Shown here piece after piece: positions 30,442 to 48,742 of a stretch of 64,000 nucleotides of DNA. This stretch comes from Lycocorax pyrrhopterus obiensis. Lineage: Eukaryota > Chordata > Aves > Passeriformes > Paradisaeidae. Where the stretch lies: NCBI GenBank assembly GCA_014706295.1, contig JACSVZ010000003.1:328473-392472 (forward strand), in the 5' to 3' direction. The translations under genes were made by a program, and so were the position numbers. Within the stretch, counting starts at the first letter, position 1. Each line of letters starts with the position of its first letter. The notes below the pieces were generated by a model that had not been told where the DNA came from, searched no databases, and was given only the letters and a program-made list of their open reading frames with translations.

Positions 30442-33400
30442 ATGCAGCTCCCCGGCGGGATGCCGCCGGCACGGTTCTTCCTCGCCCTTTGTGTCTGGAG
30501 GCTGGTGCCGCGCCGGGAGGCCGCAGGTAGCGCGGGCTGAGGGGAGGGGAGCGGGGAGCTGTGTCCCTTTTTCCTGATCTTAGTCTGCGCTGGTCGTTTT
30601 TAGTCACCTCAGAGGTCCCTCAGCAGTCCCCTAACAAGCACCCCTATTTGACACAGATAAAATATCCAGGTCTTTGCTGGCAGAAGGCAGCTTTGCCCAT
30701 TTCCTACATCCCTAATGCCATCCCTTCTCTCTTCCAGGAACAGATGAAGTGGTCTTCGGGCAGGTGGGAGGAAGCGTCCTCCTTTTATGCCGCAATGTGT
30801 CCAAGGAAGCCACCGAGGTGGTCTGGTTCCAAGGGGATCCTCACTCCTTTCCACCTCTCTTCTCCTCGAGGGTCTCCTTTCCCCCGGACGTCCGCTTCTC
30901 CCTGGTGGACAACAGCTCCCTGAGCATCACGGAGCTGCGTGTGCAGGACGAGGGCAACTACACCTGCAGGGAAGTGCTGAACAAGACAGACCATGAGCAC
31001 AGGGTGCAGCTCCTGGTGGCCAGTAAGTCATTCCCACAGCTGAGCTTCCTCCCCTTGCCCTTCCACATCCCCAAATTCATCTGGCACTGGTGGAAAAATA
31101 ATATTAAAAGAGTGCAAGGTGGCTTTATCATGCAGAATCTCTCTCACATCTGCTCACAAGCACCAAAATGTGTGTCCAAACGGCTTGTCACAGATCTGGC
31201 ATGTGCAGGGGAAATGCCAGCTCTTAAGTCCTCACTGTGTCTCTTCTTCATTGCTGGTGATAAATGAGTTTTTGGGCACATCTTCCATTCCCGGTAGCTA
31301 TTCCAGGGGGTCCCTTTGCCTCAGAATCTGGCTGACTTGAGCCTTCATAAACCTTGGGGTAGGGGCTGCTGCTCGCTGTCTGCTTTCTGGTGTTTGGGAT
31401 AGATGTGCTGTGCCATTCCTTGGTGCCATCCTTTCAGTGGGAGAACGGAGAGGGTCTCCAGCTGAGGAGTTGTACAGTGCAGCCTTCTGATAGTGACGGA
31501 AGCACGAAATTCCTCGGGTTTATGTGGGAGCAGTGTCCTGAGACTGTGCCTGTTATCAGCGCAGGCCAGTTCTTCCAGCCCTATTGTATCTTCTGGTGCT
31601 CTCTCCCCTTTCCATCTCTGTTTCATTCATTCATTCCCTTAGAAATGTTCAGAGCACAGGTGGAAGTTTGGGCTGGAAAGCACTTAAGCTGGTTAGTTCC
31701 CTCCTGCTCCTGCCGGGGCACCATTATTTTGCCCTGATGCCTCATGTATTCCATGGGAACAGCCCCCTACAGATCAGCAGGGAGCACAGGTCCTATGCCT
31801 GGTGCCACTCTTGGTCCCTTCAGGATTGAGAAGAGGGAAAATCCACTGTTTTTCCCATTTTGACCCTCTGTACTCCCTTGGCCCCTTCCTTTTTTGTCGC
31901 TCTTCCCATGTATGAGAGCTGTTTGCCTTCAGGGTGTTCCTTCCTTTTCCCTGTGTGTAAACATTGCACCTGTTTCGTACAGATTAACCTCTTGAAAGTT
32001 TACAGGAATAAAAATTCCCTTCCTGCAGCAAGGAACGTGCAGATGGGCTGTGGAAGGATTGAACCCCATCCTGCTGCAGGGAATAAATATGTAGGCACTG
32101 GGCTTGGGAGTGGGGAGCCCCAAACCTGGAGCACTGGGGCAGAACACTCAGGAGAAAAACATATTTATGGGGTGCCAAGTGTTGGTGCTGCACTCTGAAC
32201 TTCATTTATTAGCCTGGAATTAATTGTGTGAACTAATTTCCAAATATGACAAAGGCGATGTGGGCATACCCTTTGATAGGTGAGAGAGATTTCTGGGGGT
32301 GCTTTAGGTCAGCAGGAGAAGCATCAGCAGAAGTTTAACCTCTAACCTGTAGGAGGGTGTTGTAATGTATTTGAACCCTGATAGTATGCCCCAGCCAAAC
32401 CACCCTTAGTTATTCTTATCAGAGCCCTCAGGAATTAATCAAGTAATGGGTTCCACGTGTACAGCAGTTGTAAAGTTTAAGTGGAGTTTTAGGTAATCAA
32501 CAAAGTGGCTTTTGTGAAATCATATTGATTCGTTGTTCAGAAGTCCTGAGCTCCCACATGCTGGTGACCCTGCCGTGATAAACGTTGCGATAATGAAGCA
32601 GACCGGACCCTTTGCATTCTGAAGGGGGTTCTGTGGAGTGAAAAGGCGCGAGGCCCTGGTTGGAGCTCGCCCCAGCTGGACCGCGGCGGGGGGAGTCGGA
32701 GGACGGCTCTGTTGGAGTTCAGGGGCAGGAGAAAGCTCCTGGGAAAAGAGCTCTGGAAAACGTACGCTGCAGCGGGTACACCTGAAGAGGTGAGCGAGCA
32801 GGGGCTGGAGGATGGGAAAGGGACTGTCAAAAGAAGAACAGGCCACGTTCAGGGTCCTCCAGCTTATTCTCTCTGTGAGAGAAATTAGATGCCGTAAGCG
32901 ATGGATTAAAAGAAACTAAAAGAAACTAAGAGACTTTAAAAGAAACTAAGGGACTAGTATGGTATGGAAATTAATAATAACAGTGCTAAAGCAAGTAGAA
33001 GCAGAAAAAATAGCTGCAGCAGAGGCAGCAGCCCGTCTGGAGCCAGGCGGTCCCGCGGCTGCCTTTCCGACGCTCGCACGAGAATTCTTTGGGGTAGTAG
33101 ATCCAGTTATACCGTCCCTACCTTCTGCACCCTCAGAGACAGAGTTGCAGGCTCCACAGCCCGCACCAAAACCAGAGAAAATAGAAGTGGATGAGCTGTC
33201 CCCTCCACAGCCACCAGGATTACCTATGGGGTGTCCCGTGGTGTCCCCGGAAGAGTTAACAACAGCATCAGGAGGGCGCGTATACCTCCCTCCTGCCTGA
33301 CTCACTGCGGCTTGGCCAGAGCGGGGATTTAAATGCAAGTGACGGGTGTTCAAAGGCAGAGCAGTTGCGCTTCTGTGAGGAGGAAGGGGCTCCTGACCAC

Positions 33401-36400
33401 TCGCTAGCATGGTGGTTTTCACATGCAATGCGTGTGGAGAAGCTGTGAAGAAAGCATAGGTTGAAAAGCATGTGAACATCTGCAGAAACTGTCAGTGCCT
33501 GTCTTGCATGGATTGTGGCAAGGATTTCTGGGGTGATGACTATAAAGAACATGTGAAGTGCATAAGTGAAGACTGGAAATATGGTGGAAAAGGCTTTAAA
33601 GCCAAAACAAACAAAGGAGATGCTAAACAGCAGGAGTGGATTTAGAAAATTCATGAAGTAATGAAGAAGCTCAACATAAGCCCTAAAGCGTGGAACATCC
33701 TGGAACAAATGCGTGCCTTTGATAACATTCCAAGAGAAAAAAGTAAAGTTTCAGAATTCGATCAAGAACAGTTTGAGACTTCATGAGAGCACTTTGCAAG
33801 AGCAGGTGTGAGATGTTTTCTCAGAAGCAACCAGAAACATTTCAAATGAAAAAGAACAAGACAAAAGAACAAAAAGAAGGAGAAAAAAGATTTTAAATTA
33901 AAAAACCAGGCAGAAGTAAAAAAGAGTAAAAAGTCCAAAAAAGGAAAGGAGAGCATGGAGGATGAATTTGAAGTAAATGGAAATGACAATCGCAGTGAAA
34001 CAGAAGAAGAATCAAATGTAAAGAGACACAAAACATAAACATATAGAAGAGGAACCTCATACCAAAACAAAGAGAATGAAAACTGAAAGCATTTCAGAAG
34101 ACATGGAAACAGAAAATGTGGGAACAGGTAAATTCAACTGGAAGGGAACCATCAAAGCTGTTCCGAAACAGGCTCCAGACAATGAAATTTCAATTAAGAA
34201 ACTAAGAAAAAAGGTGATAGCTCAATATTATGCAGTAGCTGGTGAGTGTCACAAAACAGAAGATCGCAGGCGAATCCATGGACACTGACTACTTTTTTCT
34301 CCTAATTAATATAATTTTTTTTCTTCAAAATGTTAAGCTATTTCATTACAAACTCAAACAAGGGACACTTTGATTTAAAAAATAAGGTGGTTCAGATCTC
34401 TGCTAATTAGCAGCTGTCCTTACAGACTTTGGCAATGAATTAAATGAAAAATTGGGAAAAAAAAAGGAAAAAAGAAAAAAAAAAGGAAAAAGAAAAAAAA
34501 GAAAAAAAAAAGGAGGAAAAAACCCAATTTGTAGTGATTGGTTGGTCGCCTGGGGAGGGAGAATCTTGCTGCAACCAAGAATGGCACTTTTGAAACACAA
34601 CATTTAAAAACATGGCATTGATGGGCAATGCAGCAAATTTTCATATAATTTTGTTGGCTTTTTTCTGCTAGTAGCAAAACTTTTTTTTTTTTTTGAGAGG
34701 ATTTAATGTAATGACCCACAGCCTTGCTGACATAAAGAAGGGTTTCTGGTGTGCTAAAAGCCCTTAAGAGGAAGGACTTGCCTTCCAGCTCTGCCCCACG
34801 GCACTATTTAAACCAGCCAGGTAGGCCAAGTCAGGAAATGGAAGTCTCAGGTACTGCAGGAGCCGCTGTGAGATGAGGAGCTGCTGCACCACCACCAGAA
34901 TTTCTCAGTTATGTAAAGCCACCTGGCAAGAGAAAGGTACTGCTAGAGGCATTGGGGTGAAGAGATTGTAAAAATTGAAATGTTTTGTCATTTGGAGACT
35001 CTGGATTGCATCTAAAGATAAGAGTTGATGAGACGGTGGTGTTTTGGAAAAAGAAAGTGAAATGTTTCTAAAGTGAGACCCTATTTGTTTCAGAGCTTGA
35101 GCTGTGTCTGGTGGAACAATTGTGCCTTTTAGTCCTGCAGCGCCTCATCCCCAGTGCTGCTGAGCAGTTTCTGTCCTTAGGGTGTTAAAAAAGAGGCTGC
35201 GCTTATCCTCAGTATTTTTGTTTTAAGATGCTTGAAGTATAAATAATGACAACAAAAAAAGTAGGTCAAAGGATCAAGCATTACATATCCAAAAGAAACA
35301 AGAATAGCATTTAAAAAACATAAACAGTTAAATCAGATATTCACTGATCTAGATAGTATTAGACGCATCTAATTAGTATGTTGCAGAATAGAACTGCTAT
35401 AGATTTTTGTTATTAGCACATGAACACAGGTGTAAGAATTGTGAAGAGAGCTTCGTAAATACTATTAGCCATTACTGTATTGCTTTGTATTATTCTATAT
35501 ATAATGAAATTAGCGATCCTCTTGGTAAAAAACATAGTAAAAAGAGTTTGGCTGGTGCAAGAAGAAAAAGGGGGAATTGTTGTAATGTATTTGAACCCTG
35601 ATAGTATGCCCCAGCCAAACCACCCTTAGTTATTCTTATCAGAGCCCTCAGGGATTTGTCAAGTAATGGGTTCCACGTGTACAGGAGTTGAGCAGGTGGA
35701 CAAAATAGAGGGACCAATCAAGTAATAGGTTCCACATGTACAGCAGTTGTAAAGTCTAAGTGGAGTTTTAGGTAATCAATAAAGTGGCTTTTGTGAAATC
35801 ATATTGATTCATTGTTCAGAAGTCCTGAGCTCCCGCAGCAGGGCCCTGTTTTTTTCACAATCCCTGTTGGTGGAACATCTTATCCTGGGCTGGAGCAAAT
35901 TTTGGACACAGACTTGGCACTGCTGTGAAAGGGCCTCCCAGAATCTGTAGAGGCTTTGTGTGGGAATTACCAGCTGACAGTCTTCAACCCATCCCATGGG
36001 TGGTACCAAAAAGTTCTCTTTTTGTTTGAAACTGCGCTTTGAAAACCTCACAAGCAGTACAGTAAACATTCTAGTGACAGGACAAAGGTGCAGCCCTGCC
36101 TTGGGCTGTGATTCTGTGTTTGTTTTGGATGGGAAGCACCTGTGAAGGAGACGTGCAGTTCCACACCTCCCAGGGATTCCTTGGCACATCTGTGTGTGGG
36201 TTGATACACTGTTGGCTCTTCTGTGGGCCAAACCACAACAGGTCTTTTTTGCTGGTGTTTTGTGAGGTTTTAAGGTTTGAGAGGGTGGAGATTTTTAGGT
36301 TTTCTGTTTGGTAACTTTGTGGGAGCAGATCTCTTGTTTAGACAGAGTTGTGCTGGGAGAGCCTGGGAGTTCAGGGTGCAAAGCTGATGGCTTCAGGAGG

Positions 36401-39400
36401 CTGTTCCTGAGGTCAGCACAGAAAGTGCAGCTCTGGCTGGACATCCTGGAAGGGCTGTGTCCACCTGGACATCCTGGAAGGGCTGTGCCCCTTCGAGGTG
36501 GGGCAGTTTCTGCTGGTTCAGGCTGACAGAATGCCGTATTAGCCACAGCCAGGGTTTGGGATCAGTTTGATCTTCCCCAGAGCTGGGACACAGAGAGTGT
36601 TGCAGAGAACTTTCTTGCCAGAGCTGGGTGGTTTCAAAGATCACCCGAGGTGTGTGTACCGTTCCTGGAGAGCCAAGCCCCAGGAAGGTGTGTTCTTGCA
36701 GCTCACGTGAGGGTTTGCCGTGATGTTTGTTTTATCAATTCAAGTCATTTCAAAGTCACCTGAATAAATGCTCCCCAAAATAAGCCTCAGACATCCCTCT
36801 GACACCTCTGGGTGTGGGGCTTGCTTTGGTTTGATCTCTTGGTGGGGTCTTGTTCAGCACTGGATTAGGCACACATAGTGGTACAGCGTGTTAATTCTGG
36901 ATCAGAGTCCAGAATCCCTCTGGCTGTTAAGCCAGCACGTGCGTGGATCTGTGTGGAAGGAACAGCTGGGAGAGAGCCAGGACTGTGCCTTGTTCTCAAG
37001 TGGTGACTCAGTGTCCCTCCCCAGTAGCTGTGGCATGAGGACCAGGGCAGTGGGATTTCATTCTCTTGCTGTGTTTTTCTCATTTCCATTGGATAAAGCT
37101 GTGGCAATAATTTTTTCCCTCCCTCAAGGCTTGGCTGTGGGGGCTGTGACAGCCCCTCGTGGCTCCTGCTGGCTGTCACTTAGAGCTGCGCACGCCTGGG
37201 GCCGCGGGATGCAGCTCAGGGAGCAAGGCTTGCAGGGAAACAGGAAAGATTTTTCAAGGGGAACGATGACAAATGAATTTCAGCCCTGGCAGTGTTTCTG
37301 ACCACGTGCTGTCCTTGCTGCTAGATCCACCACAGGCAACCCCAAAGTGCTGGGCTGAGACCTCCTCGTCGGGGCTGATGCTGCAGCTGTTCTGCAGCTG
37401 GCCCGGGGGGTACCCCCACCCCACCCTGCACTGGAGAGAAGAGGGGCAGGATCTGGAGAACTCCAGCTGGGTCATCAGCTCCACCAGCTCCTCGGACACC
37501 CACGTGGAGACGCTGAACAGCTCCCACCTCTCCCACCGAAAAGTCTTCAAGTGTGTGGGTAGCCATGTGGTGAAGCAGGAGCAGCCTGCCTGCACTGTGG
37601 AGATAAGTGAGTGGATTTGCTGCCTCATTAACTGTTAATGAAGCTGCTGAAAGTGGGGTAGGTGCGTACCCCAGTCATTCCCTGCTCTCCAGAGCACTGA
37701 GGTGGTCAGGGAAGCCAGGAGGCAGCATGGCAGGACACATGTGCAGCCCAAGGCACAGATGTCCTGCAGCTGAGATCCATCACGGCAGAGTTGCAGGTGA
37801 GCTGTGTTTTGGGCCCATCTTCAGGGGCCAACAAATTTCACCACAGCAGTGTTTTCTCCAGTGGAAAGCTTTCACACACCTGCGTGAAAGTGAGAGATGG
37901 TTTGGGGGCTGTGGGCAGCTTGAGATGAAGTTTGGTAGGGTTGGGTTTAAGGGTTGTGTGTGCCCATGAGGCATCTCAGGGATCTGAGTGGCTTATGAAA
38001 ACCTGGGCTGTGTTTATCCTCCGAGGGTTGTCAGGGCTTCTTCACAAGAGCTCTGCTGATCCCAAGGAAGCTAATGCCTGGGCTGCTCTTCTCCTCTCTG
38101 CCATCTACCTGCTGGCTACCTCAGACCATTTTTCCCCGGGGATATGAAGACAGGTGTCAGAAGGGGCTGAGCACCATGAAAGCTGCTCAGGTCACTCCTT
38201 GGGAGGCTCTTGAGTGAGCCAAATGCCAAACCCCCAGTGCTCAACTCACAGACGCCTGCCTGCCTGCCTCCCTTCTGTTAATGATTATTAATCAGCCAGA
38301 AGCTTGATTGCTCATTATGTTAATTGCCTCCACTATCTCCTTGACTCCTGTTTTTGTTTTCGCCTGGGGCTGTTCAGAACTCCCTTCCCTGGAATCTGAG
38401 CCCCCCCAGACCTGCTTTGTGGGTGACAACGTGACCCTGACATGCCGGGTGACCGAGAGCACTCCGGCGGCTCGGCTCAGCTGGCTCCGGGACATCACCC
38501 GACCCGAGGCGGAGATCCAGCCTGGGGGGAGGTTCCTCATTGTCCAGGAGGGCAACGTGTCCCGGCTCACCATCCAGAACTGCTCCCAGGGCACCGATGG
38601 CGGCTGCTACGTCTGCAAGGCCCAGAACCCCGTGGGGCTCAGGGAGCTCTTTGTCTGCCTCACGGTGAAGCGTGAGTGGGGCTGTGGCAGGAGGGCTTGG
38701 GGGCACAGCACACCTGCTCTTTGGCTTGCACTGAGAATTCCTCATCCATCTATGTCCCGGTGACAAGCTCCTCCTGTGTCCCCTCTCTGCAGAGCCAGTG
38801 AACATCGTTGGCGTCGTGGGTGCTGTGGTGGTCCTGTCCCTCCTGGCTGTTCTCACCGTCACTGGGGTTGTGTTGTACTACAATCCCCTCCTGTGCCTGA
38901 GAGGTAGGGATTGGTTCCTCCCTTCCTGGGGGTTTATCCCTGACCTGCTTGTCCCTCCCAGTGTGCTGGAGTAAGTCAGGGTTGCCTGTGCCATGTGTGG
39001 GCAGGTCACCTCCACATTTGTGCCTCTGCATGGGGCTGCCAGTGACCATGTGGAGGCAGGATTGGCAGGGATTGTCCAGAGGCACTGCCAAGGGGGCAGT
39101 TTCTAACGCTATCTCTCTCTTCTCTCCCATTCAGGTGCTGCATTCAGGTGAGTGCTGACATTCCTCAGCCCAGTGCCTCATGGCATCACTACTCTGTTCC
39201 TGTAGGGCAGGAACAGGCTCTCCTCAGCCTTTCATCCAGCTTGCTCTGCTGTTCCCAGGAATGCAGACTCGGGGGATGTCTTAGTGCTGGTGGACTCTGA
39301 AGACGACGAGGAGGGGAAGGGGTCCGAGGAGGCCCTGAGCAGCTGCACCGAGCACGAGGCCATGGCGCTGGTTGGTGGGAGCAGGGCCCAGGCTGCTCAC

Positions 39401-46300: not shown

Positions 46301-48742
46301 ACTGTGCTCCCTCCTCTCTCTGAGCGGTGAGTGGAGCAGCACCTCCACGATCACATATTGTGGGATTTCTCCTTCAATCTAGTGAAACGGAGGGAGAGAT
46401 TCCAGCAGGGACCTGCCATAGCTGCAGACCCCCCATGGGCACCCCCAAATGCCACTTACCTCCTTCAGATACTCTGTGTGGTGCTTGGTGGCCACGAAGA
46501 CGACGGTCTGGTCCTGGGGCTTCACCACGCTGCGGAGCAGGTGGAGCAGCACAGCTGGTTTGTCGTCCCCGCGCACATGGAAGAACGCCAGCTGCAGCAT
46601 GAGGGCAGTGCTCAGCCCTGTGCCACCACTGCCACCCTTGTCCCCTCCTCAGGAGCAGGTGGCTTGCAGGGGGTGGGGGGCACAAAGCCCATCTTGAACT
46701 CCCCCAGCTCATCTCACCTTCAGCTGCTCGCTCAGCTTGGACTCCACATCCAGGCGGATCAGCATCGGCTCAGTGAGGCCTGTGGTGACACACAGGACAT
46801 GAGTCACACATGGCACGTGCTGCTAGGGACACCCACTTGGCCCACCGTTAATCCAGCTCTGTTTTCCCAGTGCTGGGCTCGGCCTGGCTGCGGGACTGTG
46901 CTGTGTCCCTGTCCCCAGTGCCACCTGCGCCCCGTTCCTCACCAGCCCGGGCAAACTCAACGAGCAGCTTGGGCAGCGTGGCAGAGAACAGCACGGTCTG
47001 GTGGCAGTCTGGGAGCCGGGCGATGATCTCCTGGAGCTGCTCAGCGAAGCCCATCTCGAAGAGCCTGCAGGGGAGGGGATGTGGGACATGGCAAGTCCCT
47101 CCCTGCCACACCCTGGGCATCTCACCCATGTGGGGACACTGCCAGCCCTGGGGATGCCCCTGTGCTGACCTGTCGGCCTCGTCGAACACCACGTACTCCA
47201 CAGTGTGCAGCTTCAGCTTCATCTCCACTGCCACGTGCACCAGGCGCCCAGGGGTGGCTATGATTCTGTGGGGACAGAGGTGGTGACAGGACCAGGCTGA
47301 GGGGGAGACAGTGTCCCCACACCATCCTGGGAGCAGGTCCCAAATCCAACCCAAAGAAGACACAGTAGAGACCCTATTGTTCCACAGGAGGTTGCTCCAA
47401 GGGAACACCAGGAATGCCCATCAGGCACACTGGCTCTAAACACCAGTGATGTCCCCGGATGGCTGGTGGCCATTCCTCACCGGATCCCTTCCCTTCACCC
47501 CACTCACATGTCAGGGTTCTCGTGCAGGGCAGCAAACTGGTCCTCCATCCTGTGAGAGAGGGGAGAGACTGGGGTGGCACCGGGCAGCTCAGCCCCTCAC
47601 CAGGTTTTGGGGAGGCTCAGGGAAGCAGGGATTGGAGGAGACATGGGGACAGCTTACTTGTCTCCTCCCAGGATCAGGGCTGTCTTCAAGCCGGTGAACT
47701 TGCCCAGCTGCAGGATGAGGAAGAAACATATTGGTGGGCTGTAGAACTGACCCATTACCCTCATTGATGCTACTCGCCCCTGTTGTCCCCTGTACCTCCT
47801 TAGTGAACTTGAGGGTCTGCAGGGCCAGCTCCCGGGTGGGCGAGAGGATGAGGGCGCGTGCCCCGGCCTGGCTGGGCGCCTTCAGCCGCTCGAACATGGG
47901 GATGAGGAAACAGGCCGTCTTCCCGCTGCCCGTCCGCGCCATCGCCACCACATCCCGGCCACGCAGGATGGCGGGGATGGTCTGTGGGACACCACCGTCA
48001 CTATCACTGTCACACTGCCACCCCCTGGGGCAGGGACCCACTGCTCCCCATGCTCACCTTCCTCTGGATGGGCGTGGGCACCTTGTAGCCTTTCTTCATG
48101 ATGCCCTTGAAGACAGGGTAGCTGAGGCCTAGGAGAACAGAGACAAGTGAGGGGGCATGGGCAGGAGGGGACAGTCCCTGTCCAAGGGACAGCTGACCCC
48201 TGCCCCACACGCACCCATGGACTGGAAGCCCCCGGATTTCTTCTTCTTCTGGTTCTGGGCCCGCACCATGGTCTGAGTGTCGAGCTCAGCATCGGCGTCA
48301 TCGTCCTCCTCGGCGGTGGTAGGGAAGGCGGGCAGTGGGGTCACAGGGACCTGGGGACAGGGCAGGACATGGCTGTGGTGATGGCTGTCACGGCACTGCA
48401 GCTCTGCACTGCTAGCATGGCAGGCAGGGGCACCAGTGCTGGGGACTGTGGATACTGGGGACACCGGCACTGAGACACTGGTACTCAGGACATCGGCACT
48501 GGGACAGGGGTACTGGGGACACTGGCAGTGGAGACACCCGTACCAGGAATACGGGCACTGGGGACATTGGCACTAAGGATACCGGCACGGGGGACACCGG
48601 CACATGGAGACCGGGGACCCCAGCACCGGGCGTAGCGGCGCGGGGTGCAGGGACCCCCCTCGCTCGGAGCCCTCCCCGCTGCCCTCCCGTCCCCCCGTAC
48701 CGGCGCTCTGAGGGGCTGGCGGCGGGCGCGCGGCGGCGCCAT
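43317..48742 (-). CDS. DDX54: ATP-dependent RNA helicase DDX54 (DP97)
   Basis: Twenty - strand exons: 48742-48701, 48350-48215, 48128-48058, 47981-47796, 47707-47658, 47549-47508, 47265-47170, 47064-46943, 46779-46718, 46591-46460, 46198-45988, 45688-45554, 45314-45093, 45003-44930, 44796-44599, 44436-44294, 44218-44105, 44018-43914, 43735-43632, 43540-43317. They stay in phase and give 822 aa (human 881). It is a nucleolar DEAD-box helicase and nuclear-receptor corepressor. Motifs in order: Q motif [18 protein letters not shown] (98-105), Ia PTRELA (131-136), TPGR, II DEAD (204-207), [35 protein letters not shown]. The C-terminus has the family blocks [33 protein letters not shown] and a basic tail ending KKGKLRKKM. 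Confidence 0.97.
44842..44907. repeat. (CCCRT)n pentanucleotide repeat in a DDX54 intron
   Basis: About 13 tandem CCCGT/CCCAT units fill the middle of the 133-nt DDX54 intron 44929-44797. On the DDX54 transcript strand the repeat reads GGGAY, a series of closely spaced G triplets. Confidence 0.92.
48420..48630. repeat. degenerate minisatellite in DDX54 intron 1
   Basis: About a dozen imperfect units of roughly 15-18 bp based on GGCACTGGGGACACC, with drifted versions such as GGTACTGGGGACACTGG and GGCACTAAGGATACC. It covers much of intron 1 (48700-48351) and creates long chance open frames on both strands. Confidence 0.85.

What the first reader, a model, noticed from the sequence alone, without database searches (positions are those of the whole stretch)
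32358..35837. Endogenous retrovirus that carries a host gene (LYAR): a fossil gene-transducing retrovirus
Seen: two LTRs, a tRNA-Trp-type primer site, a gag start and linker, an intronless LYAR-like sequence, an env-TM-like core, a polypurine tract and the second LTR, in that order and one orientation. LYAR sits where capsid, pol and most of env should be. Known: acutely transforming retroviruses have this layout, with host mRNA replacing viral genes. Known: bird CR1 LINEs rarely make processed pseudogenes, so an LTR-driven capture is more likely than a LINE-made retrocopy. Inference: LYAR mRNA was packaged and recombined into the virus, then endogenised. LYAR is a cell-growth-linked nucleolar protein, which makes its capture biologically interesting.
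Basis: partly seen in the sequence, partly recalled or inferred. Interest (0 to 1): 0.87.

Follow-up and report, generated by a model that had tools for sequence, protein, structure and literature searches.

The report
Dead retrovirus carrying a bird LYAR
In a songbird genome an old, broken retrovirus carries a copied host gene (LYAR) where its own genes should be; this is a clear new case of a known kind of event, rare enough in birds to be worth recording.

Summary
Window 32358-35837 is one defective provirus: TG...CA LTRs (201 and 260 nt; 7 of 201 aligned sites differ), 6-bp flanking duplication with one mismatch, primer site, a gag-like start matched by an independent protein (83% over 98 aa), a polypurine tract and a short env-like motif. 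Between gag and env lies a LYAR cDNA covering aa 1-333 of 361 of Corvus LYAR, continuous across three places where LYAR introns are inferred. It carries stops, frame breaks and deletions. No direct repeat was found flanking LYAR, so a nested LINE retrocopy is disfavoured. LYAR groups with Corvides birds, with modest support. Its decay is not significantly greater than that of the LTRs, so capture probably came at or shortly before integration. Best reading: retroviral reverse transcriptase switched templates onto a LYAR mRNA (LTR-mediated retroposition) and the chimera integrated in an intron of an Ig-domain gene. That it was ever a spreading or transforming virus is not shown: no second copy was seen, but no bird DNA could be searched (the genome tool did not complete). 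About 960 nt after LYAR are of unproven origin. Published parallels exist in crocodilian ERVs, chicken and parrot. New member of a known kind.

The parts
32352..32357 (.). 5' target-site duplication GGAGGG
   Evidence: 5 of 6 equal to GCAGGG at 35838-35843; chance 0.5%.
32358..32558 (+). 5' LTR, 201 nt, TG...CA
   Evidence: 7 differences (all transitions) over 201 aligned sites with the 3' LTR, K2P 0.036.
32562..32579 (+). primer-binding site TGGTGACCCTGCCGTGAT, three bases after the LTR
   Evidence: for sequence; tRNA-Trp type is recalled, not from a call.
32812..33300 (+). gag N-terminal remnant (MGKGLSKEEQ... and proline-rich linker), broken by stops and an internal deletion
   Evidence: P0121, 83% over 98 aa, same N-terminus; by eye the window lacks about 45 aa present in P0121. 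The name gag is inferred.
33301..33408 (+). gag/LYAR junction region, perhaps LYAR 5' UTR; exact junction not fixed
   Evidence: Inference; the P0121 match ends near 33243, LYAR start codon at 33409.
33409..34263 (+). LYAR processed pseudogene: aa 1-333 of 361, stops, frame breaks, internal losses of about 41 codons (aa 152-192) and 7 codons (aa 279-285)
   Evidence: continuous over inferred intron places.
34264..35225 (+). about 960 nt of unassigned sequence; possibly LYAR 3' UTR (ATTAAA at 34439, A/G-rich run from 34457)
   Evidence: stops in the frames shown; nine ORFs tested in or overlapping it gave no Pfam match above cut-off. Origin not testable here; the boundary at 35225 is my choice.
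35226..35559 (+). env transmembrane remnant with LQNRTAID at 35381-35404 and a continuation in another frame
   Evidence: motif once in window, 0 of 2000 shuffles; no Pfam match above cut-off, no PDB match. The motif's meaning is recalled; the start at 35226 is my choice.
35560..35576 (+). polypurine tract AGAAGAAAAAGGGGGAA
35578..35837 (+). 3' LTR, 260 nt, TG...CA, with 59 nt (35657-35715) that the 5' LTR lacks; AATAAA at 35778
35838..35843 (.). 3' target-site duplication GCAGGG

Best explanation
A retrovirus or retrovirus-like LTR element of a corvoid songbird lineage packaged a spliced host LYAR mRNA. During reverse transcription the enzyme switched from the viral RNA (env/3' end) to the LYAR mRNA and back to viral RNA in gag, so that LYAR replaced capsid, pol and most of env. 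The chimeric DNA, with two LTRs, was integrated by viral integrase (6-bp duplication) in an intron of an Ig-domain gene, in that gene's sense direction, and has decayed since. Shown: provirus frame, LYAR identity, continuity over inferred intron places, no LINE-type flanks found, corvoid affinity (modest support). Inferred: packaging, template switching and their order, and that this was a one-off event rather than a spreading virus.
For: LTRs, flanking duplication, primer site and polypurine tract in order. Gag piece matched by an independent protein. LYAR aa 1-333. Intron places at E|EPHTK, VGTG|KFNW and KKV|IAQYY, inferred because short ORFs from public contigs leave LYAR there (of 24 proteins read from the 36 hits, 17 hold only the GKFNW...KKV stretch and 4 only the EPHTK...VGT stretch) and because P0010 has 26 extra residues at the first; the window is continuous at all three. 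No exact direct repeat of 9 nt or more between 33201-33412 and 34256-35300, none with mismatches at three candidate 3' ends. LYAR falls with Corvides rows (88/92, not a starred clade). At least 21-25 nonsynonymous changes in 680 sites (3.1-3.7%) against about 1.8% per LTR (p 0.23 and 0.09).
Against: The 960-nt segment 34264-35225 is unexplained; the env part rests on a short motif; the gag name is inferred; junctions are not fixed because no parental virus or LYAR DNA was available; no second provirus of the family was seen at DNA level.
Confidence: 0.87

Rival explanations
1. A fossil gene-transducing retrovirus: the LYAR chimera replicated with a helper virus as an acutely transforming virus does, spread through several rounds, and this is one of its endogenised copies. 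(It shares the template-switch capture of the best explanation and differs on what came after.)
For: Anatomy (LTR-gag-host cDNA-env-LTR) is that of defective transducing viruses; several losses within gag and LYAR could have arisen over several rounds. The point estimate of LYAR divergence (3.1-3.7%) exceeds that of one LTR (about 1.8%).
Against: The excess is not significant (p 0.23 with 21 changes, 0.09 with 25). No protein with the window's LYAR 3' junction among the 157 fetched, which include the 36 hits; of the 870 hits only 120 were listed. No LYAR relative in viral contigs. LYAR lacks its last 28 codons.
Confidence: 0.2
2. LINE (CR1)-made LYAR retrocopy inserted into an ordinary provirus.
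For: ATTAAA at 34439 followed by an A/G-rich run from 34457 could be a decayed mRNA tail.
Against: No flanking direct repeat; the run holds G at many places but no C or T, unlike a decayed A tail at about 2% change; capsid and pol are missing on both sides; CR1 rarely makes retrocopies (PMC3136929 passages).
Confidence: 0.07
3. Assembly artefact or chance similarity.
For: None found; no Ns in the window.
Against: LYAR match E 1e-142, zinc finger E 7.8e-15, LTR pair with flanking duplication on both sides.
Confidence: 0.02

Closest known systems
LTR-mediated retrocopies (Tan et al. 2016; original not held; described in passages of PMC5408686, which names chicken; a parrot DYNLRB1 case in a passage of PMC8854603)
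   Same: Intronless host cDNA inside one LTR element, no LINE-type flanks found.
   Different: Parent gene LYAR and a corvoid songbird lineage; part of the insert after LYAR is unassigned.
Crocodilian ERVs with captured KIT-ligand and nectin3 mRNA (PMC4299795, passages)
   Same: Host mRNA inside an ERV; nectin3 replaces env.
   Different: There several copies and open frames with signs of purifying selection, and KIT-ligand came in without loss of an ERV domain; here one broken copy, with capsid, pol and most of env lost.
Acutely transforming avian retroviruses (recalled)
   Same: Defective LTR-gag-host cDNA-env-LTR layout.
   Different: No evidence of replication, helper use, expression or transformation; LYAR is not known to me as a retroviral oncogene.

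Membership tests
LTR-mediated retrocopy | insert is a spliced copy of a multi-exon host mRNA | tested here: met
   Continuous over three intron places inferred from other sequences; the parental gene itself was not available.
LTR-mediated retrocopy | insert lies between the two LTRs of one element with target-site duplication outside the LTRs | tested here: met
   one mismatch in the 6-bp duplication.
LTR-mediated retrocopy | microsimilarity at both junctions between viral RNA and host mRNA | not testable with these tools
   Needs parental ERV and LYAR mRNA sequence; the own-genome search did not complete (14 tries).
Acutely transforming / transducing retrovirus | host sequence replaces viral genes in a defective provirus | tested here: met
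   gag-like start, LYAR and env-like motif in 3.5 kb; no pol-type Pfam match among the 18 ORF pieces of the element that were scanned (one search lists 58 ORFs in 32000-36200).
Acutely transforming / transducing retrovirus | replicated in several rounds, several copies share the junctions | tested here: inconclusive
   No second copy in the protein data seen; bird DNA not searchable.
Acutely transforming / transducing retrovirus | captured gene expressed and growth-promoting | not testable with these tools
   Broken frame today; ancestral state unknown.
Class II (ERVK/alpha-beta type) ERV | 6-bp target-site duplication, TG...CA ends | tested here: met
   one mismatch; rule as stated in a passage of PMC6523648.
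Class II (ERVK/alpha-beta type) ERV | class II reverse transcriptase | not testable with these tools
   No pol was found in the element.
LINE-made processed pseudogene | target-site duplication directly flanking the cDNA, A tail | tested here: not met
   No direct repeat; A/G-rich run is not a clean tail.

The most novel reading that the evidence does not exclude
A songbird retrovirus lineage that carried LYAR spread as a gene-transducing virus, with LYAR, a nucleolar growth gene, giving it an advantage, and left several proviruses with the same junctions in corvoid birds.
Probability: 0.12. Interest if true: 0.8.

Novelty: new member of a known kind. Interest (0 to 1): 0.45.

Why it matters
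Retrocopies are scarce in birds because CR1 rarely makes them (PMC3136929 passages), so LTR elements may be a main route for new intronless gene copies (inference). This case keeps much of its anatomy and has datable LTRs, so it can show how such copies arise in songbirds. If further copies share the junctions it would be a fossil transducing virus, a class that I know mainly from laboratory and poultry isolates.

Tried and rejected
Nested LINE retrocopy: disfavoured for lack of flanking repeats (shuffles rarely gave one either). Intron retention as the cause of the LYAR 3' break: disfavoured, since the break (34263) falls after the inferred KKV|IAQYY junction and no splice-donor GT stands right at it. 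LTR pattern in viral contigs and in prokaryote genome contigs, the gag piece and P0121 in viral contigs, LYAR in viral contigs: nothing. Env piece against phage records: nothing, as expected. P0121: no Pfam, no meaningful PDB hit, low-confidence helical model (mean pLDDT 46.8), not searched by fold. Weak Pfam matches below their cut-offs, taken as chance: two; two, both to 34825-34971. Rfam: nothing at gathering scores, one far below its cut-off. Papers, ten searches: only searches had LYAR as a term; one search listed 2 of 2 papers, neither on this subject by title, and none of the 12 of 25 papers listed holds the word LYAR. So I know of no report of a LYAR-carrying ERV from these listings, which is weak evidence. 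PMC4299795, PMC5408686, PMC3136929, PMC6523648, PMC11009239, PMC7341801 and PMC8854603 were seen as passages only.

Mended on checking: LTR divergence was first counted with a few bases beyond the LTR ends (8 of 204); cut at TG...CA it is 7 of 201. The comparison with LYAR is replaced.
Full report
What is there. The interval is a single defective provirus. Its LTRs lie at 32358-32558 and 35578-35837, begin TG and end CA, and are bounded by GGAGGG and GCAGGG, a 6-bp duplication with one mismatch (chance of 5 or more of 6 equal: 0.5%). The 3' LTR has 59 nt (35657-35715) that the 5' LTR lacks, in a stretch that repeats a neighbouring unit; since both LTRs are copied from one template, the 5' LTR probably lost it (inference). 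Three bases after the 5' LTR stands an 18-nt primer site; its tRNA-Trp type is recalled. A purine-rich tract precedes the 3' LTR.

Gag and env. The 116-aa open piece 32950-33300 has one relative at E 0.001 or better among 53 candidates: P0121, an unnamed 178-aa protein (tag lgn, three contigs), 83% identical over 98 aa. P0121 starts with the same MGKGLSKEEQATF as the window at 32812, and by eye holds about 45 aa that the window lost. Neither Pfam nor the PDB names it, so 'gag' rests on its place after the primer site and on its myristoylation-like start (recalled). The env claim rests on LQNRTAID at 35381-35404, a pattern chosen after it was seen; it occurs once in the 64-kb window and in 0 of 2000 shuffles of the element. 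Its meaning (retroviral transmembrane core) is recalled, and its continuation lies in another frame. The open env pieces gave no Pfam match above cut-off and no PDB match.

LYAR. The zinc finger scores 7.8e-15 in Pfam and 5.1e-32 against LYAR in the PDB. A read-through matched 870 proteins among 1662 candidates; of the 120 listed the best is Corvus kubaryi LYAR, E 1e-142, 74% identity. The match covers aa 1-333 of 361. I compared 276 of these 333 codons in five clean blocks; the 57 left out are about 41 lost codons (aa 152-192), 7 lost codons (aa 279-285) and 9 at frame breaks. The 276 hold 3 stops and 23 changed residues, the stops included. The last 28 codons are absent.

Splicing. Of 24 short proteins read from the 36 hits, 17 hold only the GKFNW...KKV stretch of LYAR between foreign residues, 4 hold only the EPHTK...VGT stretch, and 3 are continuous LYAR. 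P0010 (Aphelocoma) has 26 extra residues at E|EPHTK. In the window all three places are continuous, so the source was spliced mRNA.

How it got there. No exact direct repeat of 9 nt or more joins the flanks of LYAR (33201-33412 against 34256-35300), and none with mismatches was found at three candidate 3' ends. CR1, the bird LINE, makes few retrocopies (78 in chicken, PMC3136929, passages). Capture by template switching within the retroviral particle is therefore the best account. [quoted passage not shown] PMC8854603 (passage) gives a parrot case.

Whose LYAR and when. In a tree of 35 rows (34 proteins that I chose from the 120 listed, plus the window, with the uncertain stretch as X) the window falls with Corvus, Aphelocoma, Rhagologus, Edolisoma, Pteruthius, Platysteira, Ifrita and two unnamed rows, support 88/92; no starred set holds it. 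That these are Corvides is recalled. Identity is highest to Corvus, 90% over 268 columns. The LTRs differ at 7 of 201 sites (K2P 0.036; 95% interval of the raw difference 1.4-7.0%), so each changed by about 1.8%. LYAR needs at least 25 nonsynonymous changes from Corvus LYAR in 680 sites, 21 if residues shared with another corvoid are left out. The excess over the LTRs is not significant (p 0.09 and 0.23), though the point estimate is higher. The insertion is about 4.5-9.5 My old with recalled avian rates, or about 1.1 My with the crow rate used in PMC7341801 (0.0158 per site per My, passage; ages).

What is not known. The 960 nt at 34264-35225 are full of stops; nine ORFs tested in or overlapping them gave no Pfam match above cut-off, two weak ones below it. 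They may be LYAR 3' UTR: ATTAAA at 34439 stands just before an A/G-rich run. Then about 700 nt after the run still want a source. No DNA of the source genome or of any bird could be searched: the genome search gave 'busy' 14 times. No protein with the window's LYAR 3' junction was seen among 157 fetched, but these are only the listed hits. So one-off capture and spreading virus cannot be told apart; I favour the first.

Setting. The provirus lies between two Ig-domain exons on the same strand (30716-31267 V-set, 38308-38763 I-set); a PEBP1-like exon lies upstream on the other strand. By recalled gene order the host gene is VSIG10; that the two Ig exons belong to one gene is inferred.

Noticed in passing
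35657-35715: 59 nt in the 3' LTR, part of a local repeat, absent from the 5' LTR: a loss in the 5' LTR after integration or a copying error.
   Followed up: partly
34264-35225: About 960 nt of apparently non-coding sequence inside the provirus with an ATTAAA followed by an A/G-rich run; origin unknown.
   Followed up: partly
32790-32795: GTGAGC after GAAGAG shortly before the gag start: a possible viral splice donor.
   Followed up: no
30716-38763: The provirus sits between two Ig-domain exons (probably VSIG10) in sense orientation, near a PEBP1-like exon; effect on the host gene untested.
   Followed up: partly
48454-48614: 15-nt minisatellite array (about 10 copies) near the DEAD-helicase exons on the minus strand.
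   Followed up: no
P0121: An unannotated gag-like N-terminus with no Pfam family, from three short public contigs of unnamed host.
   Followed up: partly
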